From: Chitinophaga agri | GTDB lineage: Bacteria > Bacteroidota > Bacteroidia > Chitinophagales > Chitinophagaceae | Direction of reading: 5' to 3' | DNA: 64,000 nucleotides | NCBI RefSeq assembly: GCF_010093065.1 | Contig: NZ_CP048113.1 | Span: 2,418,001-2,482,000, forward strand | Shown: positions 18,824-28,736 of the stretch, piece after piece | Position numbering within the stretch: position 1 is the first letter of the stretch | How the letters are laid out: every line of letters starts with the position of its first letter | Notes under the pieces: generated by a model | What the model was told of the DNA's origin: nothing | Seen by the model: only the letters and a program-made list of their open reading frames with translations | Database searches by the model: none | Position numbers and translations under genes: made by a program

Positions 18824-19456
18824 ATGACACTGAGCGAATTTATATCATCACTGATCAATAAAGGAGAAGTCATCGTAGCTCCCGCTCTCCAGCCATTTGA
18901 CACGGACGATCTCCGGGTCGCCCGGATCCATCTGGAGCAGCACTATACGGACGACGTCAGTGAAGTGCCGGGACAAGCTCCCGCGTATGATCCGGAGGCC
19001 GCTATATGGGCAGCCGGTTATCTGTACAGGACCGTACAGTTCCTGTTACTCAGACACCTGGATGCATCGGACATCGAAGCGCACCTGCCTCCTTTTACTG
19101 GGGTGCAAACGCCTGCGGCTATCTATTCCGCTGATCTGTGTTTACGTTACCTGCCGGATATATTCCTGCTGGCAAAAGGCATCTCTCCGGAAGATCCATT
19201 GGTCGTTACACTACAGGCCATGACATTACAATGGCCACTATCGGCGGCCGCTATCCCGGGCGTCGTATCAGCAGACCTGTCGGCCGTACTGCAACACCCG
19301 TCACTGACACGCATGTACACAGACAGGATCATCCTGGCAAAAGACTTTGACAAATGCACACATCCGGCCTGTCTTCCTCTTGTAGCGGAAGCCCTGGGCG
19401 CATACAGTGCAAAATTCTGGCCGCAATTTAAAATAGACCTTACTGCTCATAACTAA
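18824..19456 (+). CDS. Ternary-system accessory protein (bpX-type, unknown)
   Basis: A 210-residue cytosolic, mostly helical protein (MTLSEFISSLINKGEVIVAP...), first gene of the MoxR/vWA/propeller operon. It has no catalytic motif that I recognise. Features: acidic DTDDLRVARIHLEQHY, then AAIWAAGYLYRTVQFLLLRHL and a C-terminal ALGAYSAKFWPQFKIDL. I think it corresponds to one of the small bpX domains (possibly bpX4) defined for MoxR-vWA-beta-propeller ternary systems, but the number is from memory and unsure. The 3-nt gap to the MoxR gene makes co-translation likely. The ATG at 18824 is preferred over the TTG at 18761, which would add a 21-residue low-complexity stretch. Confidence 0.7.
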   Translation: MTLSEFISSLINKGEVIVAPALQPFDTDDLRVARIHLEQHYTDDVSEVPGQAPAYDPEAAIWAAGYLYRTVQFLLLRHLDASDIEAHLPPFTGVQTPAAIYSADLCLRYLPDIFLLAKGISPEDPLVVTLQAMTLQWPLSAAAIPGVVSADLSAVLQHPSLTRMYTDRIILAKDFDKCTHPACLPLVAEALGAYSAKFWPQFKIDLTAHN

Positions 19457-19459
19457 CAT

Positions 19460-20611
19460 ATGCAACCTGTAACCTTTGAATCACCGCTGGTAGACAAACT
19501 GAATGGTATCCTGCAACGCCTGAAAGGCACATTCGTAGGAAAAGATGATGTGATAGACCTGATGGGTATCTGCCTAGCAGGCAGAGAGAACCTGTTCCTG
19601 TTCGGTCCTCCGGGTACCGCCAAAAGTGCCATTGTACGTGAACTATCCCGCCAGCTGGATGTGCAGACATTTGAATACCTGCTCACCCGCTTCACAGAAC
19701 CCAACGAACTCTTTGGCCCGTTCGACATCCGTAAACTACGCGACGGCGAGCTGGTTACCAATACCGAAGGCATGTTGCCGGAAGCATCGCTCGTATTTCT
19801 CGACGAGCTGCTGAACGCCAACAGTGCTATTCTGAACAGCCTGCTCATGGCGCTGAACGAAAAGATCTTCCGCAGAGGTAAAGAAACACGCGAACTGCCG
19901 GCCCTGATCTTCATCGGCGCCAGCAATCACCTGCCTGAAGATGAAGCTCTCCAGGCATTGTTTGACAGGTTCCTGCTCCGTGTACGTTGTACCAACGTGG
20001 ACCCCGCCATGCTGAATAGCGTACTGCAGGCAGGCTGGGGATTGGAACAGGCCGCGACCAATGGACAGGAAGGTATCCCCGCGGCGGACCTCCGCACCCT
20101 GCAGCAGCTCACCACCACCGTGGACCTGAACGCTGTAAGACCGGATTACATTATGCTGATACAGCAGCTGCGCAATGCGGGTGTACAGATCTCAGACAGA
20201 CGTGCGGTGAAACTCCAGCGCCTGATCGCAGCCAGCGCCCTGCTTTGTAAAAGAACGACAGCCATCCTCTCCGACCTCTGGGTCCTGCGTTACATCTGGG
20301 ATACAGAAGAACAGGTGGAGATCATTGCCGGCATCGTCAACACCGTGATCGCACAAGCCGCCACACATCCGCAGGAACATCCCCGCGCGAACAACAGTGG
20401 TACGCCGGATGCAGAAACACTTTACAGTGAAGTGGAAGAGCTGCATCAGCAATGGGACGATCCTGCTGCTACACCGGCGTCCCGTGCACAGATCAAGGAC
20501 AGGCTGCGCAGCATCACCAGCCGCTGTGAATGGATCAGTAATGCGACACAACGCAACTACGTACAGGAACCCATAGATGGACTATGGAAGAAGATAATGC
20601 AAACAGCATGA
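19460..20611 (+). CDS. MoxR-family AAA+ ATPase of a ternary conflict system
   Basis: A 383-residue MoxR/RavA-like AAA+ chaperone. Walker A GPPGTAKS at residues 49-56, Walker B LVFLDELLNANSAILN at 111-126, sensor 1 IGASNHLPE at ~152-160, the arginine-finger block FDRFLLRV at 168-175, then the helical lid. The C-terminal ~80 residues are helical. MoxR ATPases pair with vWA-domain proteins to remodel metal- or complex-bound clients. Here the partner is the degenerate-vWA/propeller gene two cistrons downstream. Its TGA stop overlaps the ATG of the next gene (ATGA). I infer this is the NTP-dependent switch of the system: it would use ATP to control assembly or release of the bpX and propeller proteins. 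Confidence 0.93.
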   Translation: MQPVTFESPLVDKLNGILQRLKGTFVGKDDVIDLMGICLAGRENLFLFGPPGTAKSAIVRELSRQLDVQTFEYLLTRFTEPNELFGPFDIRKLRDGELVTNTEGMLPEASLVFLDELLNANSAILNSLLMALNEKIFRRGKETRELPALIFIGASNHLPEDEALQALFDRFLLRVRCTNVDPAMLNSVLQAGWGLEQAATNGQEGIPAADLRTLQQLTTTVDLNAVRPDYIMLIQQLRNAGVQISDRRAVKLQRLIAASALLCKRTTAILSDLWVLRYIWDTEEQVEIIAGIVNTVIAQAATHPQEHPRANNSGTPDAETLYSEVEELHQQWDDPAATPASRAQIKDRLRSITSRCEWISNATQRNYVQEPIDGLWKKIMQTA

Positions 20612-21312
20612 AAGAAATGATCGTTGTGTTGTCAGCAGACAACATGGAATCACTTGGCAGTATACGTACCTGGCCTGGCCTGCTGGTGTCACTATCCGGT
20701 GATCAGATCTGGGTAAGAGGGATACCACCTGACGCAAATGATATACGGTTACGTAAGTTGCCTGCCATACATACCTACCTGGCCGATTTCCAGGAACGTT
20801 TATTCCTCCCCGGTAAACAAACACCGCATGATGCACTGAAAAGAATGACCTGGGAATCGCTGGCTTCTTTTATAAAAGTGGAACTGCCGGTATCTGCCTT
20901 ACCAGGATCGACAGCAGGTGTATTTACTATAAAACTGGCACCTTCCGCACAGCACACAGAACCGGCGGGCATCATCACCTCCCTGGAACACTGGAAAGCC
21001 TATGCGGATAGCGCTCCGCTGATCAGGTTACAGGGACTGGTCTTCGCTGCCTGCGGGTCAGGGGAAGTACTGATCATGGGCACGCCGGTTCCGCCGATAC
21101 CCGGTCAGGCATTCACGCTGCATGATCAGCTGTTATTGCCTGCGGGATATGACTTCGATCCACCGGCAGCAGGCGTGTTCATTGCGGCACATTTTAAACA
21201 GGAGACCGGGACTTTTATACGCTATCATCGCGATGGCCGCTGGGAGAAGATCCCGGGGAGTAGTTTCGTACATGCTACCAGGAGTGCCATACGCCTTACC
21301 AACATTGACTAA
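20608..21312 (+). CDS. Ternary-system bpX-type protein (unknown)
   Basis: A 234-residue protein between the MoxR and vWA/propeller genes. The frame reaches back to an ATG at 20584, but the ATG at 20608 forms an ATGA overlap with the MoxR stop and is the likely coupled start (MKEMIVVLSADNMESLGSI). The sequence is mixed alpha/beta: short strands around a TWPGLLVSLSGDQIWVRGIP region, a helical centre, then QGLVFAACGSGEVLIMGTP. No catalytic motif or transmembrane segment. It probably matches one of the small bpX families (perhaps bpX5; number unsure). Its TAA overlaps the next ATG (TAATG). Confidence 0.7.
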   Translation: MKEMIVVLSADNMESLGSIRTWPGLLVSLSGDQIWVRGIPPDANDIRLRKLPAIHTYLADFQERLFLPGKQTPHDALKRMTWESLASFIKVELPVSALPGSTAGVFTIKLAPSAQHTEPAGIITSLEHWKAYADSAPLIRLQGLVFAACGSGEVLIMGTPVPPIPGQAFTLHDQLLLPAGYDFDPPAAGVFIAAHFKQETGTFIRYHRDGRWEKIPGSSFVHATRSAIRLTNID

Positions 21313-23831
21313 TGAATAAGAAAGACTGGAGTACAGCATATTTTGAGTCAACAACCAACTACTTCTGGCGCTGGGCGCAGGAAGAAGGAACAGGGAGCCT
21401 CGTTGTTGAGACAACGGTTCCTGCTATCACTATTTGCTACTGGGAGGAACTTTTGAATGACCTGCAGTCAATGACGGGGCATCTTCCACCGTTGTCTGTT
21501 CTGCTGATGACCATGGCCATCGGCAAAACAGATGAGGAGCATGCGACTACCCACTTCACCCGTGAGTCTGTACAGTTACATCTTTTACGCCCCATCATGC
21601 GCAGGGATACCTGGTCAGAATTGCTGCCACTTGAAGAACTGAAAGAGCTGACGGCAACGATCACCAGTTTTGTACAACGCCTGCATGCTCTTCCCAGGAG
21701 ATACTGGCAGGGAGATGAACGGCACCTGTTATTCAAAACACTTTTTGCATGTACGCCGGCGGAAATGTCTCCCAAAGAGGCGCACGAAATGCTGACAATG
21801 TTCCGGGAAACAGGCATGCTGCCTTCTCTTAATAAACGTGCTGAAGAATACAAGATTGAACAGGCCAGAACGGATGCCGGGTTCCTGAAAATGATCCTGG
21901 AACAGTATCCCGACAGTGACGCGCTGGAAAAGGCGTTAAAGGCTGCTATCATGCCTCCGCCACCACCTCCTCCTGCTCCGATCGAAGTGCCGGAAAAGCT
22001 GCCGCTGCCTGCGGACGCGAAGGAGTTGTCATTACTGCAGCTACTGGCAGAAGATGACCGGACGGCGTATATCGCCCTGCTCACCCAACGCCTGCTGGCG
22101 GCATTACACCTGCCAGCACATATGCCGCACGCCGGAGATATCACCGTAGGTGGTGTTGCTGATATTACCAATAAGGGCACGATAGACAGACTGCTGATCA
22201 GTGAACTGGCCAATGAAGATGACGTACTCATGGCAAGGCTGGCAAATAATGAAGCACTATATCTGCGCCGGGAAGAAGTGCCTGACAACGAGCCACCACA
22301 CCGGTATATCCTGATCGATAAAAGTATCCGGATGTGGGGAACTCCGCATATACTGGCAATAGCTACCGGACTGGCCTGCGCGCTGGACAACAAACGCGCT
22401 GCGGCTATACATGCGTTTGCGCTGACGGGTGACACTTTTCAACCCATTGACCTTACAGAGAAAGATGATATTGTCAGAACGATGCACCGCCTGTCTCCTG
22501 CCCTGAACAGCGCAGCGGCATTAACGGCATTCAATATGACGCATCCGCTCACGATGAGTGATGAATACTTCCTGATCACCAGTGAGGAATTATTTAATCA
22601 ACCTGCATTCCAGCAGGCCTTTGCTGCGTTAAGAACAGTGAACGGGTTTCTGATCACTGTCAGCAGAGAGGCGGACGTACTGGTATACAGGTATATGTCC
22701 GGCCACCGGAAACTACTGCGTACGTCAAAGATCAACCTGGACCCACCCAAAGCATTACCTAAAAAAGCACCGGCGAAAGATGCTTTCAGGGGAACGCCTA
22801 CTGTAATGGACGTACCGAAATTCCTCCAGGAGTCCCCACTGCCCCTGCTGATGGCAGCAGGCAGTCTCTATCGTCATTCGAATAGAAGTGCATCAGGACA
22901 GGAAGGCTATCTGGCACTGACCGAACAACGGCAACTGGTATTCTGGCCGGACCGGAAAAAAGGCGGATCAGAGATCATGTCCCTATTCCCCGAAGCCTAT
23001 GCGGAAAAATATTACTTCGGATATACCGGCGCACATTATGTCTTTTCCTTCCAGGAAAAACATAGCCGGAACATCAAACTGTATCAGTTCTCGCCCGAGA
23101 CGCTTGAACTGATCGAAATACCGGTCAGTATGACGCTGCCTGCCACACCGGAAAGGCTGTTTGATGACCTGTATGATACCAGGACCCACCAGTTTATATT
23201 CACCAGGAACCGATGGAAAACAGACCTTGTGACACTGGATGTGTATAGTGGTTTGTTAGCCGCTGATCAAACCCGGACATGGGAGGTCGTTAAAAAGGAA
23301 CTTGATGAAGAGAAAAGAAAAGCGAATCTGAAGTATTATGTGCCTCCACCAGTAGCTCCGCAATATTTCACATTCATATCGGCACTCAAATCCATTAAGA
23401 TAAATAAGAAGGGGAATCTCGTCATCAATGGTAAACATGAGCTGACCTTTGTGCCCAACAATATGGAGTTTGTGCTGACACACGGACCTGTTGAAGCGCG
23501 CGATATCGTATTGACAGCGGAGAAACTGAAATTAAAAGACCTCCGGCCACCGCTGCTGCGTTATAACTGGCCCGACGGCAGTGAGCTATGGTTTGACAAA
23601 GCGCGGCATATGCTGTACCTGCGGAGCTCAGACAAAGCAATCCCGGAAATGGCGATACCACTGGTGATACAGACACAGACAGCCTGCTGGGCATCAGATG
23701 GCGTTATCTGCGGAAATCCCTACTTCCGGCCGAAAGAAGTGGAGGTCATTACCGTCATGGACTTCCATGAGAAATATTTCAGACCATTTATAAACGTAAT
23801 TCAGCAATATGCTACTGCAGCTGCAACCTGA
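21312..23831 (+). CDS. vWA-like / beta-propeller core protein of the ternary system
   Basis: An 839-residue cytosolic protein in four parts. Residues 1-210: helical N-terminus. Residues ~215-225: a proline run (MPPPPPPPAP) followed by a Pro/Glu linker. Residues ~330-475: a vWA-like fold starting RYILIDKSIRMWGTPHIL and continuing to DEYFLITSEE. The MIDAS motif DxSxS is reduced to D336-K-S338-I-R, so metal binding may be weak or lost. Residues ~510-839: repeated strand pairs (GYLALTEQRQLVFWPD, HYVFSFQEK, GNLVINGKHELTFV, ELWFDKARHMLYLR) that fit a WD40-like beta-propeller. This fusion is the expected central partner of MoxR in ternary systems. It overlaps the next gene by 23 nt. Confidence 0.82.
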   Translation: MNKKDWSTAYFESTTNYFWRWAQEEGTGSLVVETTVPAITICYWEELLNDLQSMTGHLPPLSVLLMTMAIGKTDEEHATTHFTRESVQLHLLRPIMRRDTWSELLPLEELKELTATITSFVQRLHALPRRYWQGDERHLLFKTLFACTPAEMSPKEAHEMLTMFRETGMLPSLNKRAEEYKIEQARTDAGFLKMILEQYPDSDALEKALKAAIMPPPPPPPAPIEVPEKLPLPADAKELSLLQLLAEDDRTAYIALLTQRLLAALHLPAHMPHAGDITVGGVADITNKGTIDRLLISELANEDDVLMARLANNEALYLRREEVPDNEPPHRYILIDKSIRMWGTPHILAIATGLACALDNKRAAAIHAFALTGDTFQPIDLTEKDDIVRTMHRLSPALNSAAALTAFNMTHPLTMSDEYFLITSEELFNQPAFQQAFAALRTVNGFLITVSREADVLVYRYMSGHRKLLRTSKINLDPPKALPKKAPAKDAFRGTPTVMDVPKFLQESPLPLLMAAGSLYRHSNRSASGQEGYLALTEQRQLVFWPDRKKGGSEIMSLFPEAYAEKYYFGYTGAHYVFSFQEKHSRNIKLYQFSPETLELIEIPVSMTLPATPERLFDDLYDTRTHQFIFTRNRWKTDLVTLDVYSGLLAADQTRTWEVVKKELDEEKRKANLKYYVPPPVAPQYFTFISALKSIKINKKGNLVINGKHELTFVPNNMEFVLTHGPVEARDIVLTAEKLKLKDLRPPLLRYNWPDGSELWFDKARHMLYLRSSDKAIPEMAIPLVIQTQTACWASDGVICGNPYFRPKEVEVITVMDFHEKYFRPFINVIQQYATAAAT

Positions 23832-26640
23832 TATACAAACGCGGCATAAAACAGCTGCCGCTTTCCTGAGAGGCAACTCACCGGAACAATGGTTCCGTGA
23901 GATGAATGAATGGCAGATACCACTACAGCATCTCACCGGACTACTGCTGCCTGCACATAAAAACACCGTGGAACCGGGAGGCTTGCTGGTTATCTTTAAA
24001 AATGATATTCCTGCTCCCGATAAGATCATCCATGCATATGGTGTGATTAACGACAACCTGTTTATTCCGGTAAATGCACAGATCATACCTGCCGTTACTG
24101 CGGAAGAAATGAAGGAGCTGCTGATATGGCACCGCCAGGTAATGCATCCGGGGATTGGTTTCATTGGTTATGAAGCAAGAGATGAAAGACCACTTTCCTC
24201 CTTCATTACACCAGGTAGCGAGGTACAACGCTCCTGGGGACATGCACATCCGGGATTACCACTACTGGCGCCACTTACCAGCATTGGTGTGGCAAGGTCG
24301 CAGGAGGAAGAGATCAGTGACATGCTGGGCATCTACGAACAACGGCCGCTGGATGAATTACCAGAAGACGATACACCCCTGACTGACGATCATATTGCGT
24401 CGGAAGACAGACGGTCATTTACTGACAGGGAACTTCCCTCCTTCTTCCGGTACAATCCGCTGGGTATCATGCTGGCAGCCATCTTAGCCGGCCTGGCTAA
24501 GCTGTTTTCTTTCGGCGGCCGCACCTTTATGGGTATGGGACGTGGCGGCTTTTCCCGTGGTGAAGGCGATGGAGGCCATACATTCGGCCGTTCCCGTAAA
24601 CGGAATGGTCCTGATGATCTGAAAAACTTACAGACAAAAAGAGACCGGGAACTGGAACGATTACTCCGGTTATTTGATACGAACCTGTCAGAAGCCTTAA
24701 AGTTTGCGATTCCCCTGCAGGACAATGGGGCCGGTAGAGGAACGGCCAGTCCTTCGGCACGGTTAGGAGAAAGATCTACCGACTTTAATATGGGTTCACT
24801 GTTCAGCAACAGACCCGTAGACGGATGGTCCGTTGGGGATGACCATGGAACACGACTGCGGCAGAAATATGAGGAACAGGCAAAGAAAGCGACAGAAGAT
24901 GGTAACCACCGGCAGGCGGCCTACATCTATGCACATCTGCTGGGCGACCTGAACCGGGCAGCCAAAGTACTGGAATGGGGCAGGTTTTATCATGAAGCGG
25001 CTACCCTTTATCTCAACCATCTTAAGCAGCCACTGGAAGCCGCCAGATGTTATGAGGAGGGCGGATTACTGCTGGATGCCATCAGGATCTACAAGGAACA
25101 GGAGAAATTTGAGAAGACCGGAGACCTGCTGATGCAGTTGTCACAGACAGGTAGTGGGCAGCAATATTACCAGCTGGCGACAGATAGGTCCCTGCGCAAA
25201 AAGGACTTTCTGGATGCCGCACGTATACAGCACGATAAACGCAAAGATCCTGATGCCGCCTGTGAGACCCTCCTGAAGGGCTGGCAGATGAACTATGATG
25301 GGGTGAAATGCCTGAACAGGTACCTGAAAATCAGCAATGAGCTGGATAAAGAAAGGTTAGCGGAAAAGATCGAACTGGTCTACACAGAAAAAACAGCGCC
25401 TGTCCAACTGGAAACCCTGCTGGACACCCTGATCGGTTTCCGGCCTGATATGAATGATGCCGCCAAAGATACCACCACAAGGATCGCCTTTGAGGTAATA
25501 AGTCCGCTGGTTGAAAAAGGAAAGGAAGAGAAGCTGGAAATACTGAAAAAAGTGCTGCCGGGAGATAAGCAGTTATCATCCGATATTCAGCGCTACCTGC
25601 ACCGGAATAAATATCCGGATGCACAGATGAACATGGAGCATAGTTTCAAACTGCGGGAAGACATTGAATGGTGTGGCGCGACGTCCGTCAATAACCAGCT
25701 GGTGTTTGTAGGTATGAAAGAAACCCGGCTGTTTGTGGTGCGGATGCTGCCGAATGGCCGTCAGCAGTATTACTCCTGGGAATCGAAACACCTGGCAGAT
25801 AATTTAGACAGGAAACGGAAAGTCATGCTTTATCCCTACTTCCCGGTCAGTGGCGACAACCGTTACTATAGACAGACCATGTTCCTGCAAACAGATCGTG
25901 GAGTGATAGACCTGGGAAAGCTGGTATTGCCTGCAGAAAAACCGTTTGAAGGAACGATCGTGCTGGATACAACCGATTATTCCATTCATGGGGATATGCA
26001 GGGTATCACAACAGATAAAGATGAACAGGTCATCACCCTGATGACCGATAAAAAGAACGGACAGGCAATATTACGCGATTTTCACCAGGATGAGGAGCTG
26101 CAGCAGGTCAGATGTTATAATGCGGAGGACAATTCGCCGGTGATCATCCCTAAAAGGATTAAAAATACAGTAGATCTGCAACTCTATGGTAATGAACCAT
26201 TTTTCACCTGGTACGGCAACAGACTGTACCGGTTCAATTCGATCGGAGAGACTGAGATCCTGAAAACAGCGGCCGCCATTGATAACCTGGCCATCTATCA
26301 AACCGTCAGGGCCACTACACTGGTGGTATCTACAGCAAAAGGATGCTACTGGGTCCTGGATGATAAGGATGGCTTCAGGGTGATCACCAGCAACTTTACC
26401 GCCGAGCCGCATACCGGCCCCTGGAAGATGCTATCCGACGAACGACTGGTAATGGCCAATAAGACCACAGGAGCGACCGTCTATGAGTTTAACAATAAAA
26501 ACGGGGGAAGAACGGTACAGCAGCTGAAAACCGCCTCCGCCATCAGATTTATCCTGATGATGCACCATCCTGATCAGGTATTCCTGGTTGATGACAAAGG
26601 CAGGACGTCCCTGCACGAAATCAACGCTTCAGGAAGATAG
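23809..26640 (+). CDS. Large helical-solenoid/propeller protein of the ternary system (bpX6-like)
   Basis: A 943-residue protein closing the operon. Residues 1-165: globular N-terminal domain, probably the domain called bpX6 (number from memory). Residues ~217-235: a hydrophobic segment (GIMLAAILAGLAKLFSF) flanked by a Gly/Arg-rich stretch, so it may insert in a membrane. Residues ~350-605: short helical pairs in TPR/COP-like style (AAYIYAHLLGDLNRAA, EAARCYEEGGLLLDAIRIY, KTGDLLMQL). Residues ~620-943: strand-rich repeats fitting a second beta-propeller (NQLVFVGMKETRLFVVR, RLYRFNSIGETEIL). No enzyme motif. I infer a scaffold or sensor/effector linking the MoxR-vWA switch to the membrane or to a target. 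Confidence 0.78.
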   Translation: MLLQLQPDIQTRHKTAAAFLRGNSPEQWFREMNEWQIPLQHLTGLLLPAHKNTVEPGGLLVIFKNDIPAPDKIIHAYGVINDNLFIPVNAQIIPAVTAEEMKELLIWHRQVMHPGIGFIGYEARDERPLSSFITPGSEVQRSWGHAHPGLPLLAPLTSIGVARSQEEEISDMLGIYEQRPLDELPEDDTPLTDDHIASEDRRSFTDRELPSFFRYNPLGIMLAAILAGLAKLFSFGGRTFMGMGRGGFSRGEGDGGHTFGRSRKRNGPDDLKNLQTKRDRELERLLRLFDTNLSEALKFAIPLQDNGAGRGTASPSARLGERSTDFNMGSLFSNRPVDGWSVGDDHGTRLRQKYEEQAKKATEDGNHRQAAYIYAHLLGDLNRAAKVLEWGRFYHEAATLYLNHLKQPLEAARCYEEGGLLLDAIRIYKEQEKFEKTGDLLMQLSQTGSGQQYYQLATDRSLRKKDFLDAARIQHDKRKDPDAACETLLKGWQMNYDGVKCLNRYLKISNELDKERLAEKIELVYTEKTAPVQLETLLDTLIGFRPDMNDAAKDTTTRIAFEVISPLVEKGKEEKLEILKKVLPGDKQLSSDIQRYLHRNKYPDAQMNMEHSFKLREDIEWCGATSVNNQLVFVGMKETRLFVVRMLPNGRQQYYSWESKHLADNLDRKRKVMLYPYFPVSGDNRYYRQTMFLQTDRGVIDLGKLVLPAEKPFEGTIVLDTTDYSIHGDMQGITTDKDEQVITLMTDKKNGQAILRDFHQDEELQQVRCYNAEDNSPVIIPKRIKNTVDLQLYGNEPFFTWYGNRLYRFNSIGETEILKTAAAIDNLAIYQTVRATTLVVSTAKGCYWVLDDKDGFRVITSNFTAEPHTGPWKMLSDERLVMANKTTGATVYEFNNKNGGRTVQQLKTASAIRFILMMHHPDQVFLVDDKGRTSLHEINASGR

Positions 26641-26711: not shown

Positions 26712-26779
26712 TAATAGCGGATTATGCTACACGCACTAATCTGCCGTCATGTTTTTACTTACACGCCAAACCCTGGATC

Positions 26780-27406
26780 ATGGATAAAAAACTCATACGC
26801 GACGCTTATAAAACTTACTGGCTGGAAAATGGTAAAAAGCCTGTTTCTGTGTATACCTTCTGTCAGCAGCTGGAGATCTCAGAAACAAACTTTTACGACA
26901 GCTATTCCTCATTTGATGCACTGGAGAAAGACATCTGGCGCGCCTTCCTGGAAGAGACACTGGACAAGCTGAAGGAGGACGAGATCTATCAGAACTATTC
27001 TGCCCGGGAGAAACTGCTGACTTTTTATTTCCTCTGGGTACAGACATTACGCGAAAACAGAAGTTATATTTTACAGCAGAAAGAGCAATACCTGGTACCA
27101 GGTCTGCACCTGGACAAACTGGAAGCCTTCCGTATCGCGTTTTATGACTATATCCGTGCACTCATCCTGGAAGGTTATCAGACGGGTGAGATCAAGGAAC
27201 GTAAGTACATTTCTGACCAGTATGTACACGGTTTCTGGTTACAGGCCCTGTTTGTACTGCGTTACTGGACAAAAGATGACAGTGACCGCTTTGAAATGAC
27301 AGATGCTGCCATCGAAAAAGCCGTTAATCTGAGCTTCCAGCTGATCAGTTCCAATACGCTTGACAGCATACTGGACTTTGGAAAATTCATGTTTGCAAGG
27401 AAATAA
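26780..27406 (+). CDS. TetR/AcrR-family transcriptional regulator
   Basis: A 208-residue protein. The frame is open from 26669, but the ATG at 26780 (MDKKLIRDAYKTYWLENG) begins a normal TetR-type N-terminal helix. The helix-turn-helix region PVSVYTFCQQLEISETNFYDSYSSFDALEKDIW follows the TetR pattern (helix, turn, recognition helix with FYDSYSS in place of LYYHF). The C-terminal ~140 residues are the helical ligand/dimerisation domain. It lies 7 bp before the ABC1-kinase gene, a pairing that suggests it controls that gene and itself. No operator could be assigned. Confidence 0.85.
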   Translation: MDKKLIRDAYKTYWLENGKKPVSVYTFCQQLEISETNFYDSYSSFDALEKDIWRAFLEETLDKLKEDEIYQNYSAREKLLTFYFLWVQTLRENRSYILQQKEQYLVPGLHLDKLEAFRIAFYDYIRALILEGYQTGEIKERKYISDQYVHGFWLQALFVLRYWTKDDSDRFEMTDAAIEKAVNLSFQLISSNTLDSILDFGKFMFARK

Positions 27407-27413
27407 TACGGTG

Positions 27414-28736
27414 ATGAAAGAACAAACTAATATCCCTACCGGAAAAGTTGAACGTGCCAGCAAATTTGTTACGACGGGATTAAAAGTAGGTACCAATTAC
27501 CTTAAACATTATACAAAGAAACTTATTGATCCTTCTATTAGCAGAGAAGAGCTGCATGCCGACAATGCAGAGGACATTTACGACACCCTCAGCAATCTGA
27601 AAGGAAGCGCATTGAAAGTTGCGCAGATGCTTAGTATGGACCGCGGCATGCTGCCAAAGGCTTATTCAGAGCGTTTTGCCATGTCTCAGTACAGTGCCCC
27701 TCCCCTTTCCGGCCCGCTGGTGATCAATACATTTATAAAGACACTGGGCAAATCTCCTTCCCAGCTATATGATAAGTTTGAGATGCAGGCGTCTAATGCA
27801 GCGTCTATCGGACAGGTGCATAAGGCCGTAAAATGGGGGAAGGACCTGGCGGTGAAGATCCAGTATCCGGGAGTGGCGAACAGTGTTAAATCCGACTTAC
27901 GTATCGTAAAGCCTTTCGCCATGCGTATCGTAGGAATGACAGAAGTGGATATGGACAAGTACTTCCAGGAAATAGAAGGAAAGCTGCTGGAAGAAACTGA
28001 TTACCAACTGGAGATAAGACGCTCTATAGAAGTATCTGAGAAATGCGCGCATATTCCAAATCTTGTATTCCCGGTATATTACCCGGAACTCTCAAGTGAC
28101 AGGATCATTACGATGGACTGGCTCAAAGGGTTCCACCTGAAAGAATTCCTGGAACGTGATCCGTCTCAGGAAGCACGTAATCAGATCGGACAGGCACTGT
28201 GGGACTTCTACCAGTTCCAGGTACATGCGCTAAAACAGGTACATGCCGATCCGCACCCGGGCAATTTCCTGATGCGGGAAGATGGTACTGTAGGTGTGTT
28301 TGACTTTGGTTGTATCAAGGAAATTCCGGAGGACTTCTACGTTAATTACTTCCTGCTGACCAATAAAGAGGTACTGAAAGATGAAGTAAGGCGTAGAGAG
28401 ATCTATACGAACCTGGAAATGATCCATCCGAGTGATACCGAAAAAGAAGTGGTATTCTTCTCAGGGCTGTTCCAGCGTATGATCGATCTGCTGACGCTTC
28501 CGTTCACCCAGGAGGAATTTGACTTTGGCAATGAGTCCTATTTCACGGAAATATATGCCTACATGGACTACCTCTCCAATCTGAAGGAAGTAAGAGAGTC
28601 CAAGGTAGCGAGGGGTTCCCGACACTCGCTGTATGTGAACAGAACGTATTTCGGCCTGTATTCTATCCTGAGTGACCTGAAGGCAAAGGTCATCACCAAT
28701 GAGGCACGTATCCAGACAATGATGCACCCGGCATAA
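27414..28736 (+). CDS. ABC1/AarF (UbiB-like) atypical kinase family protein
   Basis: A 440-residue ADCK/UbiB-family protein. Seen: the N-terminal family motif as LKGSALKVAQMLSMD (a variant of the usual KxGQ, with VAQ), the Ala-rich SNAASIGQVHKA, the lysine strand DLAVKIQYPG, the acidic ETDYQLE, the catalytic loop HADPHPGNFLM and the metal-binding FDFG. These proteins are ATP-binding and linked to quinone or lipid handling at the membrane. No transmembrane helix is obvious at the C-terminus. The start is the ATG at 27414; the track-style extension overlaps the TetR gene. A terminator follows. Confidence 0.9.
   Translation: MKEQTNIPTGKVERASKFVTTGLKVGTNYLKHYTKKLIDPSISREELHADNAEDIYDTLSNLKGSALKVAQMLSMDRGMLPKAYSERFAMSQYSAPPLSGPLVINTFIKTLGKSPSQLYDKFEMQASNAASIGQVHKAVKWGKDLAVKIQYPGVANSVKSDLRIVKPFAMRIVGMTEVDMDKYFQEIEGKLLEETDYQLEIRRSIEVSEKCAHIPNLVFPVYYPELSSDRIITMDWLKGFHLKEFLERDPSQEARNQIGQALWDFYQFQVHALKQVHADPHPGNFLMREDGTVGVFDFGCIKEIPEDFYVNYFLLTNKEVLKDEVRRREIYTNLEMIHPSDTEKEVVFFSGLFQRMIDLLTLPFTQEEFDFGNESYFTEIYAYMDYLSNLKEVRESKVARGSRHSLYVNRTYFGLYSILSDLKAKVITNEARIQTMMHPA

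What the first reader, a model, noticed from the sequence alone, without database searches (positions are those of the whole stretch)
18824..26640. Five-gene MoxR-vWA-beta-propeller ternary operon
The genes are tightly packed: 3-nt gap, ATGA overlap, TAATG overlap and 23-nt overlap. They encode a MoxR AAA+ ATPase, two small unknown proteins, a vWA/propeller fusion and a large solenoid/propeller protein. This composition corresponds to the ternary NTP-dependent conflict systems described by comparative genomics in 2020 for social and multicellular bacteria. The biochemistry of the small and N-terminal domains remains unknown, so the operon may be an anti-invasion system of interest.
Basis: partly seen in the sequence, partly recalled or inferred. 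Interest (0 to 1): 0.85.

Follow-up and report, generated by a model that had tools for sequence, protein, structure and literature searches.

The report
Known MoxR-vWA beta-propeller conflict operon
A Chitinophaga-like bacterium carries a complete copy of a five-gene machine that others predicted to fight invading viruses, and in some related bacteria the same machine sits beside clusters of tRNA genes and RNA-repair enzymes, which suggests what it may protect.

Summary
18824-26640 is a same-strand five-gene operon: bpX4, bpMoxR, bpX2, bpX0-vWA-bpX1 and bpX3-solenoid-propeller. It fits subsystem 4 (beta-propeller ternary systems) of Kaur et al. 2020, including the GXXXTAKS P-loop. The anti-invader role is those authors' inference; I could not test it, and no defence-library model fits.

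New here: the gene order was the same in all 39 family loci read (of 41 carriers) and complete in 69 of 80 named loci. In the window's slot the operon is inherited vertically, but two of 21 genomes have lost it, one of them the window's nearest neighbour in the flank tree. vWA and bpX3 proteins evolve five to seven times faster (dN) than flanking genes; MoxR up to twice.

The unexpected part is in relatives. In Flavobacterium the operon mostly lies downstream of tRNA genes and an RNA-repair cassette; in Chryseobacterium upstream of one: the cassette exonuclease was 7.7-19.3 kb downstream in 86 of 86 assessable genomes. Nothing similar was found beside the 39 family loci, this one included. I favour an invader-triggered MoxR-vWA remodelling machine tied to tRNA/translation damage. 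Identity is near certain, mechanism about even odds.

The parts
18824..19456 (+). gene 1: bpX4 protein (210 aa), biochemistry unknown
   Evidence: PF19920 1.8e-61; first gene in 39 of 39 loci
19460..20611 (+). gene 2: bpMoxR AAA+ ATPase (383 aa), P-loop GPPGTAKS, Walker B FLDE
   Evidence: PF20030 2.9e-99; motifs invariant in 9 sequences; nearest solved relative RavA 1.4e-54
20608..21312 (+). gene 3: bpX2 protein (234 aa from the ATGA start)
   Evidence: PF19918 1.5e-60; alignment; no solved relative at E 0.1
21312..23831 (+). gene 4: bpX0 - conserved segment 265-325 - vWA (about 330-473) - beta-rich, partly propeller-like region (about 513-801) with bpX1
   Evidence: PF19915, PF19917; AlphaFold model mean pLDDT 83.6; structural matches; conservation
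23809..26640 (+). gene 5: bpX3 (3-169), low-confidence poorly conserved linker with hydrophobic segment about 218-236, alpha-solenoid (344-601), WD40-like propeller (608-943)

Best explanation
This is a complete MoxR-vWA-beta-propeller ternary system, with one bpMoxR and one bpX2 gene in the genome (identity about 0.98). Most likely mechanism, each step marked. (1) MoxR forms an ATPase ring that works on the vWA protein (inferred from family knowledge). (2) The most conserved stretch of the vWA protein, residues 265-325 just before the vWA domain, partly without confident structure in the monomer, is the probable MoxR contact or induced-fit switch (inferred). (3) The beta-rich half of gene 4 and the solenoid and propeller of gene 5 hold a client or sensor complex, which gene 5 may keep near the membrane through its hydrophobic linker segment (architecture predicted, tethering inferred). 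(4) ATP-driven remodelling of that complex is switched on by invader-linked injury to translation, most plausibly tRNA damage, because in Flavobacterium and Chryseobacterium the same operon neighbours tRNA arrays and RNA-repair enzymes (linkage shown; causal role inferred; not present at the window's own locus). The bpX4 and bpX2 proteins are constant accessory subunits (constancy shown, role inferred). The stated confidence is for the mechanism as a whole.
Against: With 18 cassette queries none of the 39 family loci, the window or the two empty sites shows an RNA-repair gene, and ARAGORN finds one lone tRNA in those 39 loci (L078) and none in the window. The two best RNA ligases of the window's genome are unlinked and without the cassette. 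In the Flavobacterium-type sample 15 of 24 genomes with the exonuclease lack bpX2, so bpX is not needed for it; one Flavobacterium-type carrier (L179) has no cassette in the stretch read. No conventional effector was recognised. No significant PADLOC match (best 0.0066). In the window's slot inheritance is vertical rather than mobile.
Confidence: 0.5

Rival explanations
1. Stand-alone anti-phage sensor and containment machine with no tRNA link, as Kaur et al. propose: propellers or the variable part of the bpX3 protein bind invader proteins and MoxR-vWA assembles a membrane-proximal block.
For: Slow MoxR with fast-evolving vWA and bpX3 proteins; patchy presence and losses; hydrophobic segment of gene 5, 19-residue hydropathy 1.6 or more in 41 of 91 homologues; no tRNA array near the 39 family loci.
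Against: No defence-gene context around the window's copy: of 9 neighbours scanned only the ABC1 kinase matches PADLOC, weakly, to kinase-type PD-T4-6 models; near-universal presence in the Chryseobacterium-type sample (99 of 108) is unusual for a patchy defence system; does not explain the tRNA and RNA-repair neighbours.
Confidence: 0.35
2. RavA-ViaA-like stress chaperone for an endogenous complex (respiratory, membrane or ribosomal), not a conflict system.
For: Closest solved relative of the MoxR is RavA (1.4e-54; NCBIfam RavA 6.6e-48); dN/dS 0.04-0.30 for the five genes in the seven close pairs with useful divergence; vertical inheritance in the slot.
Against: NCBIfam RavA score 164 against a cut-off of 681; absent from 50 of 79 genomes of the genus and lost in close relatives; extra bpX proteins and propellers are not part of RavA-ViaA (recalled).
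Confidence: 0.25
3. The tRNA and RNA-repair neighbours are genomic hitchhikers: islands accumulate beside tRNA genes, and gene order is simply inherited within each genus.
For: tRNA genes are usual island integration sites (recalled); within each genus the arrangement is shared by descent; in the operon tree the Flavobacterium and Chryseobacterium copies lie in neighbouring clades (0.81), so the link may have arisen once; absent near the 39 family loci.
Against: Opposite arrangements in the two genera (cassette upstream or downstream); arrays of several tRNAs with RNA ligase, exonuclease and phosphoesterase rather than one attachment tRNA; the RNA ligase family differs (RLIG1-like or Rnl2), so roles rather than one inherited block are kept; all 9 bpX2-bearing of 121 Flavobacterium-type genomes have the exonuclease close by, against 15 of the other 112 having it at all (not phylogeny-corrected).
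Confidence: 0.3

Closest known systems
MoxR-vWA subsystem 4, beta-propeller ternary systems (Kaur, Burroughs, Iyer, Aravind 2020, PMC7159879; Pfam bpMoxR, bpX0-bpX4)
   Same: GXXXTAKS MoxR; vWA protein with N-terminal helical and C-terminal beta domains; third component with bpX3, poorly conserved linker with hydrophobic segment, solenoid and propeller; two further linked genes.
   Different: No difference in architecture that I could show; the gene 4 propeller is only partly resolved, and an L12/ClpS insertion was not looked for. The two further genes are present in 39 of 39 loci here, where the paper says 'a subset'. The paper's held main text has 'tRNA' and 'RNA repair' only in its reference list and no 'RNA ligase', 'slipin', 'exonuclease' or 'anticodon'.
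RavA-ViaA (E. coli)
   Same: MoxR AAA+ plus vWA partner; RavA is the nearest solved structure of the MoxR.
   Different: Below the RavA family cut-off; further bpX proteins and propellers; patchy distribution.
tRNA arrays with RNaseR, RNaseH and DNA polymerase III epsilon-like exonuclease (Altae-Tran et al. 2023, PMC10910872, passages read)
   Same: The cassette beside the Chryseobacterium operon has RNaseH_like (PF04308) and RNase_T exonucleases next to a tRNA array.
   Different: The passages I read do not mention a MoxR-vWA-propeller operon beside those arrays; whether they are the same arrays was not tested.
Anabaena trn operon of 26 tRNAs, induced by translational stress; TrcR, its repressor, also represses rtcB and a slipin gene (PMC10272220, passages read)
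   Same: A reserve tRNA array co-regulated with an RNA ligase and a Band-7/slipin protein.
   Different: No bpX operon is mentioned in the passages read.

Membership tests
MoxR-vWA beta-propeller ternary system (Kaur subsystem 4) | MoxR AAA+ of the bpMoxR type with GXXXTAKS P-loop | tested here: met
   bpMoxR 2.9e-99; GPPGTAKS invariant in 9 sequences; motif text
MoxR-vWA beta-propeller ternary system (Kaur subsystem 4) | vWA domain, possibly with degenerate MIDAS | tested here: met
[quoted passage not shown]
MoxR-vWA beta-propeller ternary system (Kaur subsystem 4) | N-terminal helical and C-terminal beta domain of the vWA protein (bpX0, bpX1) | tested here: met
   PF19915 53.4 bits and PF19917 70 bits, cut-off 27 each
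MoxR-vWA beta-propeller ternary system (Kaur subsystem 4) | Third component with bpX3, TPR-like solenoid and propeller | tested here: met
MoxR-vWA beta-propeller ternary system (Kaur subsystem 4) | Variable region with membrane-spanning segment in the third component | tested here: inconclusive
   Linker 181-270 is poorly conserved (0.23-0.25; the propeller stretch 661-690 is lower, 0.18) and holds a hydrophobic stretch, but only 41 of 91 homologues reach hydropathy 1.6
MoxR-vWA beta-propeller ternary system (Kaur subsystem 4) | Role in biological conflict | not testable with these tools
   Needs phage or plasmid challenge; only indirect signs
RavA-ViaA | MoxR scoring over the RavA equivalog cut-off | tested here: not met
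   164 bits against 681
Known defence systems in PADLOC-DB 2.0.0 | A significant match of any of the five proteins | tested here: not met
   Only MoxR has matches at E up to 1, best 0.0066 to an AAA region
Metabolic MoxR cluster (dehydrogenase, gas vesicle) | Metabolic or structural client genes next to the MoxR | tested here: not met
   Nearest neighbours are a 3-keto-disaccharide hydrolase on one side and TetR and an ABC1 kinase on the other, and these stay together where the operon is absent

The most novel reading that the evidence does not exclude
The enigmatic beta-propeller MoxR-vWA systems are tRNA-damage response machines: they work with reserve tRNA arrays and RNA-repair enzymes (RNA ligase, exonuclease, phosphoesterase, Band-7, cyclic-phosphate receiver domain) to keep translation going, or to control its shut-down, when anticodon nucleases or phages attack tRNA. 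Chitinophaga copies such as the window's run the same machine without the local repair cassette.
Probability: 0.35. Interest if true: 0.82.

Novelty: new member of a known kind. Interest (0 to 1): 0.55.

Why it matters
Kaur et al. call these systems enigmatic because they show no conventional effector. The operon in the window is one more, cleanly readable member. The comparative result, that relatives of the same operon sit with tRNA arrays and RNA-repair genes in two arrangements, gives the first concrete biochemical hypothesis that I know of and makes the function testable by deletion plus tRNA sequencing. I found no statement of that link in the papers searched (listings; passages). Supplementary files and paywalled papers were not searched, and Burroughs and Aravind 2016 on RNA-repair systems is not held and could contain it.

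Tried and rejected
Rejected: an ordinary metabolic MoxR cluster (neighbours do not fit and persist without the operon). Rejected: a mobile island hopping in this slot (operon and flank trees agree in their main groups), although three Chitinophaga copies (L072, L073, L103) fall apart from the others and suggest transfer. Rejected: TetR and ABC1 as members of the operon, because both remain at the two empty sites. Tried without result: four tRNA clusters of the window's own genome and its two best RNA ligases of five matches are not beside such a cassette; the single-sequence queries did not find those two ligases themselves, so their sensitivity is limited. No solved relative of the bpX2 profile (E 0.1) or the gene 4 profile (E 0.01). 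In the fold searches single domains filled the lists, so bpX0, bpX1 and bpX3 were barely tested. Against predicted viral structures gene 5 gave partial matches, mostly uncharacterised or WD40-repeat proteins and some gamma-SNAPs; the table gives no aligned ranges.

Dropped before counts: L054 from the gene 5 profile and rates (broken gene). dS is saturated for many pairs, so rates are compared by dN. In one search the best exonuclease match per genome was used; G805 and G817 counted as having it on weaker matches whose place was not listed, and five more (G623, G766, G784, G794, G815) have operon and exonuclease on different contigs. One of the 99 bpX2-bearing genomes (G807, 75% complete) has stops in bpX2. 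Some named loci are the same genomes as unnamed ones (for example L137 and L177, MoxR 100% identical), so the sets overlap.
Full report
What is there. Five genes on the plus strand, 18824-26640, packed with a 3-nt gap and 4-, 1- and 23-nt overlaps. Pfam matches all of them: bpX4, bpMoxR, bpX2, bpX0 plus bpX1 on one protein, and bpX3. This is the cast of the MoxR-vWA-beta-propeller ternary systems of Kaur et al. 2020 (abstract, section 8, part 1 of section 35 and searched passages read). The genome has one bpMoxR at 332 bits; its three other matches score about 50 bits or less. No Rfam family reaches its threshold and no tRNA is found in the window.

Distribution and inheritance. bpX2 occurs in 29 of 79 genus genomes, 14 of 294 family genomes, 13 over cut-off, 10 of 395 in a phylum sample, 99 of 108 Chryseobacterium-type genomes and 9 of 121 Flavobacterium-type genomes; the first three counts include the window's own genome. 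The five-gene order holds in 39 of 39 loci read and is complete in 69 of 80 named loci, which are the best 80 of a capped list of 554. Of the 29 copies in the genus, 19 lie between a 3-keto-disaccharide hydrolase and the TetR-ABC1 pair; 10 lie elsewhere. By the listed matches 21 of 79 genomes have those flank genes together; 2 of the 21, G041 and G067, have that slot empty. In the unrooted flank tree G041 is the nearest neighbour of the window's genome (0.94) and G067 of two carriers (0.999), both among carriers, so both are best read as losses. Operon and flank trees agree in their main groups. In a wider tree of bpX4, MoxR and bpX2 three Chitinophaga copies (L072, L073, L103) lie apart from the other Chitinophaga copies (0.93), which suggests transfer.

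Rates. Among the 19 syntenic copies (18 for gene 5) the median dN is 0.35 (bpX4), 0.17 (MoxR), 0.44 (bpX2), 0.61 (vWA) and 0.61 (bpX3), against 0.12, 0.09 and 0.085 for TetR, ABC1 and the hydrolase. In the eight closest pairs, leaving out one nearly identical pair, dN/dS of the five genes is 0.04-0.30, so they are kept under purifying selection. A slower MoxR with fast partners fits the constant-core and variable-partner pattern that Kaur et al. take as a sign of conflict, but it is not proof.

The unexpected linkage. Clustering up to six genes on each side of the 80 named loci showed recurrent RNA-repair neighbours. In 15 of 17 Flavobacterium-type named loci an RNase_T-family exonuclease lies upstream; 9 of 17 also have an RLIG1-like RNA ligase; others carry a calcineurin-like phosphoesterase and a Band_7 protein; 14 of 17 have tRNA genes upstream, up to seven. 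In Chryseobacterium the tRNAs lie downstream instead: all 6 named loci and 4 of 5 sampled genomes show arrays of 3-15 tRNAs; in the fifth (L183) the contig ends inside the operon. Rfam confirms the tRNAs in the four loci checked (L133, L145, L164, L187) and finds none in the window's locus L084. Behind the array, in the 4 stretches fetched: RNaseH_like 4, cyclic-phosphate receiver 3, phosphoesterase 3, RNase_T exonuclease 3, T4 Rnl2-type RNA ligase 1, Band_7 1. Apart from Flavobacterium, Chryseobacterium and the single cases below, the other named loci showed no hit and no array (single tRNAs in L093 and L123).

Testing the linkage. In 108 Chryseobacterium-type genomes bpX2 and the exonuclease occur together in 93, bpX2 alone in 6, exonuclease alone in 1 and neither in 8 (Fisher p 7e-8). 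In 86 of 86 genomes with bpX2 and the best exonuclease match on one contig, that match is on the same strand, 7.7-19.3 kb downstream (median 13.5). In 121 Flavobacterium-type genomes all 9 with bpX2 have the exonuclease, on the same strand and upstream of bpX2: 2.0-2.1 kb away in 8 and 8.2 kb in one by the listed coordinates. Of the 112 genomes without bpX2, 15 have it (p 1.2e-7). Adding the three further carriers of the phylum sample, G642 and G646 have it and G690 (L179) shows no cassette in the stretch read. Neither p-value corrects for shared ancestry, and Flavobacterium and Chryseobacterium copies lie in neighbouring clades (0.81), so the link may have arisen once and been rearranged. Further single cases: KptA beside L095 and L109 (opposite strand in L109), PRS plus NAMPT beside L095 and L144, NAMPT beside L150. 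Nothing of the kind was found near the 39 family loci or in the window, nor beside the tRNA clusters and RNA ligases of the window's genome that I looked at.

Reading. Membership in the known family is settled by five domain models over cut-off families, the P-loop and the gene order; the gene 4 propeller and the membrane segment remain inconclusive. Function is open. I favour an invader-triggered MoxR-vWA remodelling complex whose trigger or client is damage to tRNA or translation, because that explains the neighbours in relatives; for the window this rests on homology alone. Related facts in print: reserve tRNA arrays co-regulated with an RNA ligase and a slipin in Anabaena (PMC10272220, passages), and tRNA arrays with RNaseH and epsilon-like exonuclease found by deep clustering (PMC10910872, passages). 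The searches listed under Why it matters found no paper that joins such arrays to the bpX operon; Burroughs and Aravind 2016 could not be read.

Noticed in passing
window 26759-28736: TetR (TetR_C_23) and an ABC1-family kinase directly downstream; both stay at the same place when the operon is absent (L085, L086), so they are not part of it. The kinase has weak matches to PD-T4-6 models, probably the generic kinase fold.
   Followed up: yes
L085 and L086: Empty sites between the 3-keto-disaccharide hydrolase and TetR-ABC1 in two genomes of the genus; the stretch between shows no similarity to the window's operon.
   Followed up: yes
L054 and L088: Gene 5 is broken into four ORFs in a record titled Chitinophaga pinensis YS-16; decay or sequencing error, left as it is.
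   Followed up: no
L056, L065, L075, L076, L078; L074, L077, L079, L151, L182: Gene 5 exists in short forms or split into two ORFs (in L182 a bpX3 protein and a protein with TPR and weak SNAP matches), so its modules are separable.
   Followed up: partly
L074, L077, L079: Copies from one genus of the window's family group with Chryseobacterium copies in the operon tree (support 1.00), suggesting transfer between families; no tRNA array beside them.
   Followed up: partly
L112: A Thermoanaerobaculia MAG contig carries the operon with about 3.6 kb between bpX2 and the vWA gene, no bpX4 found and only a piece of bpX3; distant transfer or MAG contamination.
   Followed up: no
L138, L139, L148, L176, L178: A protein of about 750 aa with a sub-threshold prokaryotic RING match lies upstream of the operon in several Flavobacterium-type loci.
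   Followed up: no
window genome 4263771-4264180 (L189): Four tandem low-scoring tRNA genes, three with Trp anticodon and one unreadable, within 410 bases of the window's own genome; unexplained.
   Followed up: partly
L154 and L163: Inserts inside the operon: about 1.8 kb between bpX2 and the vWA gene in L154, about 3 kb between bpX4 and MoxR in L163; contents not examined.
   Followed up: no
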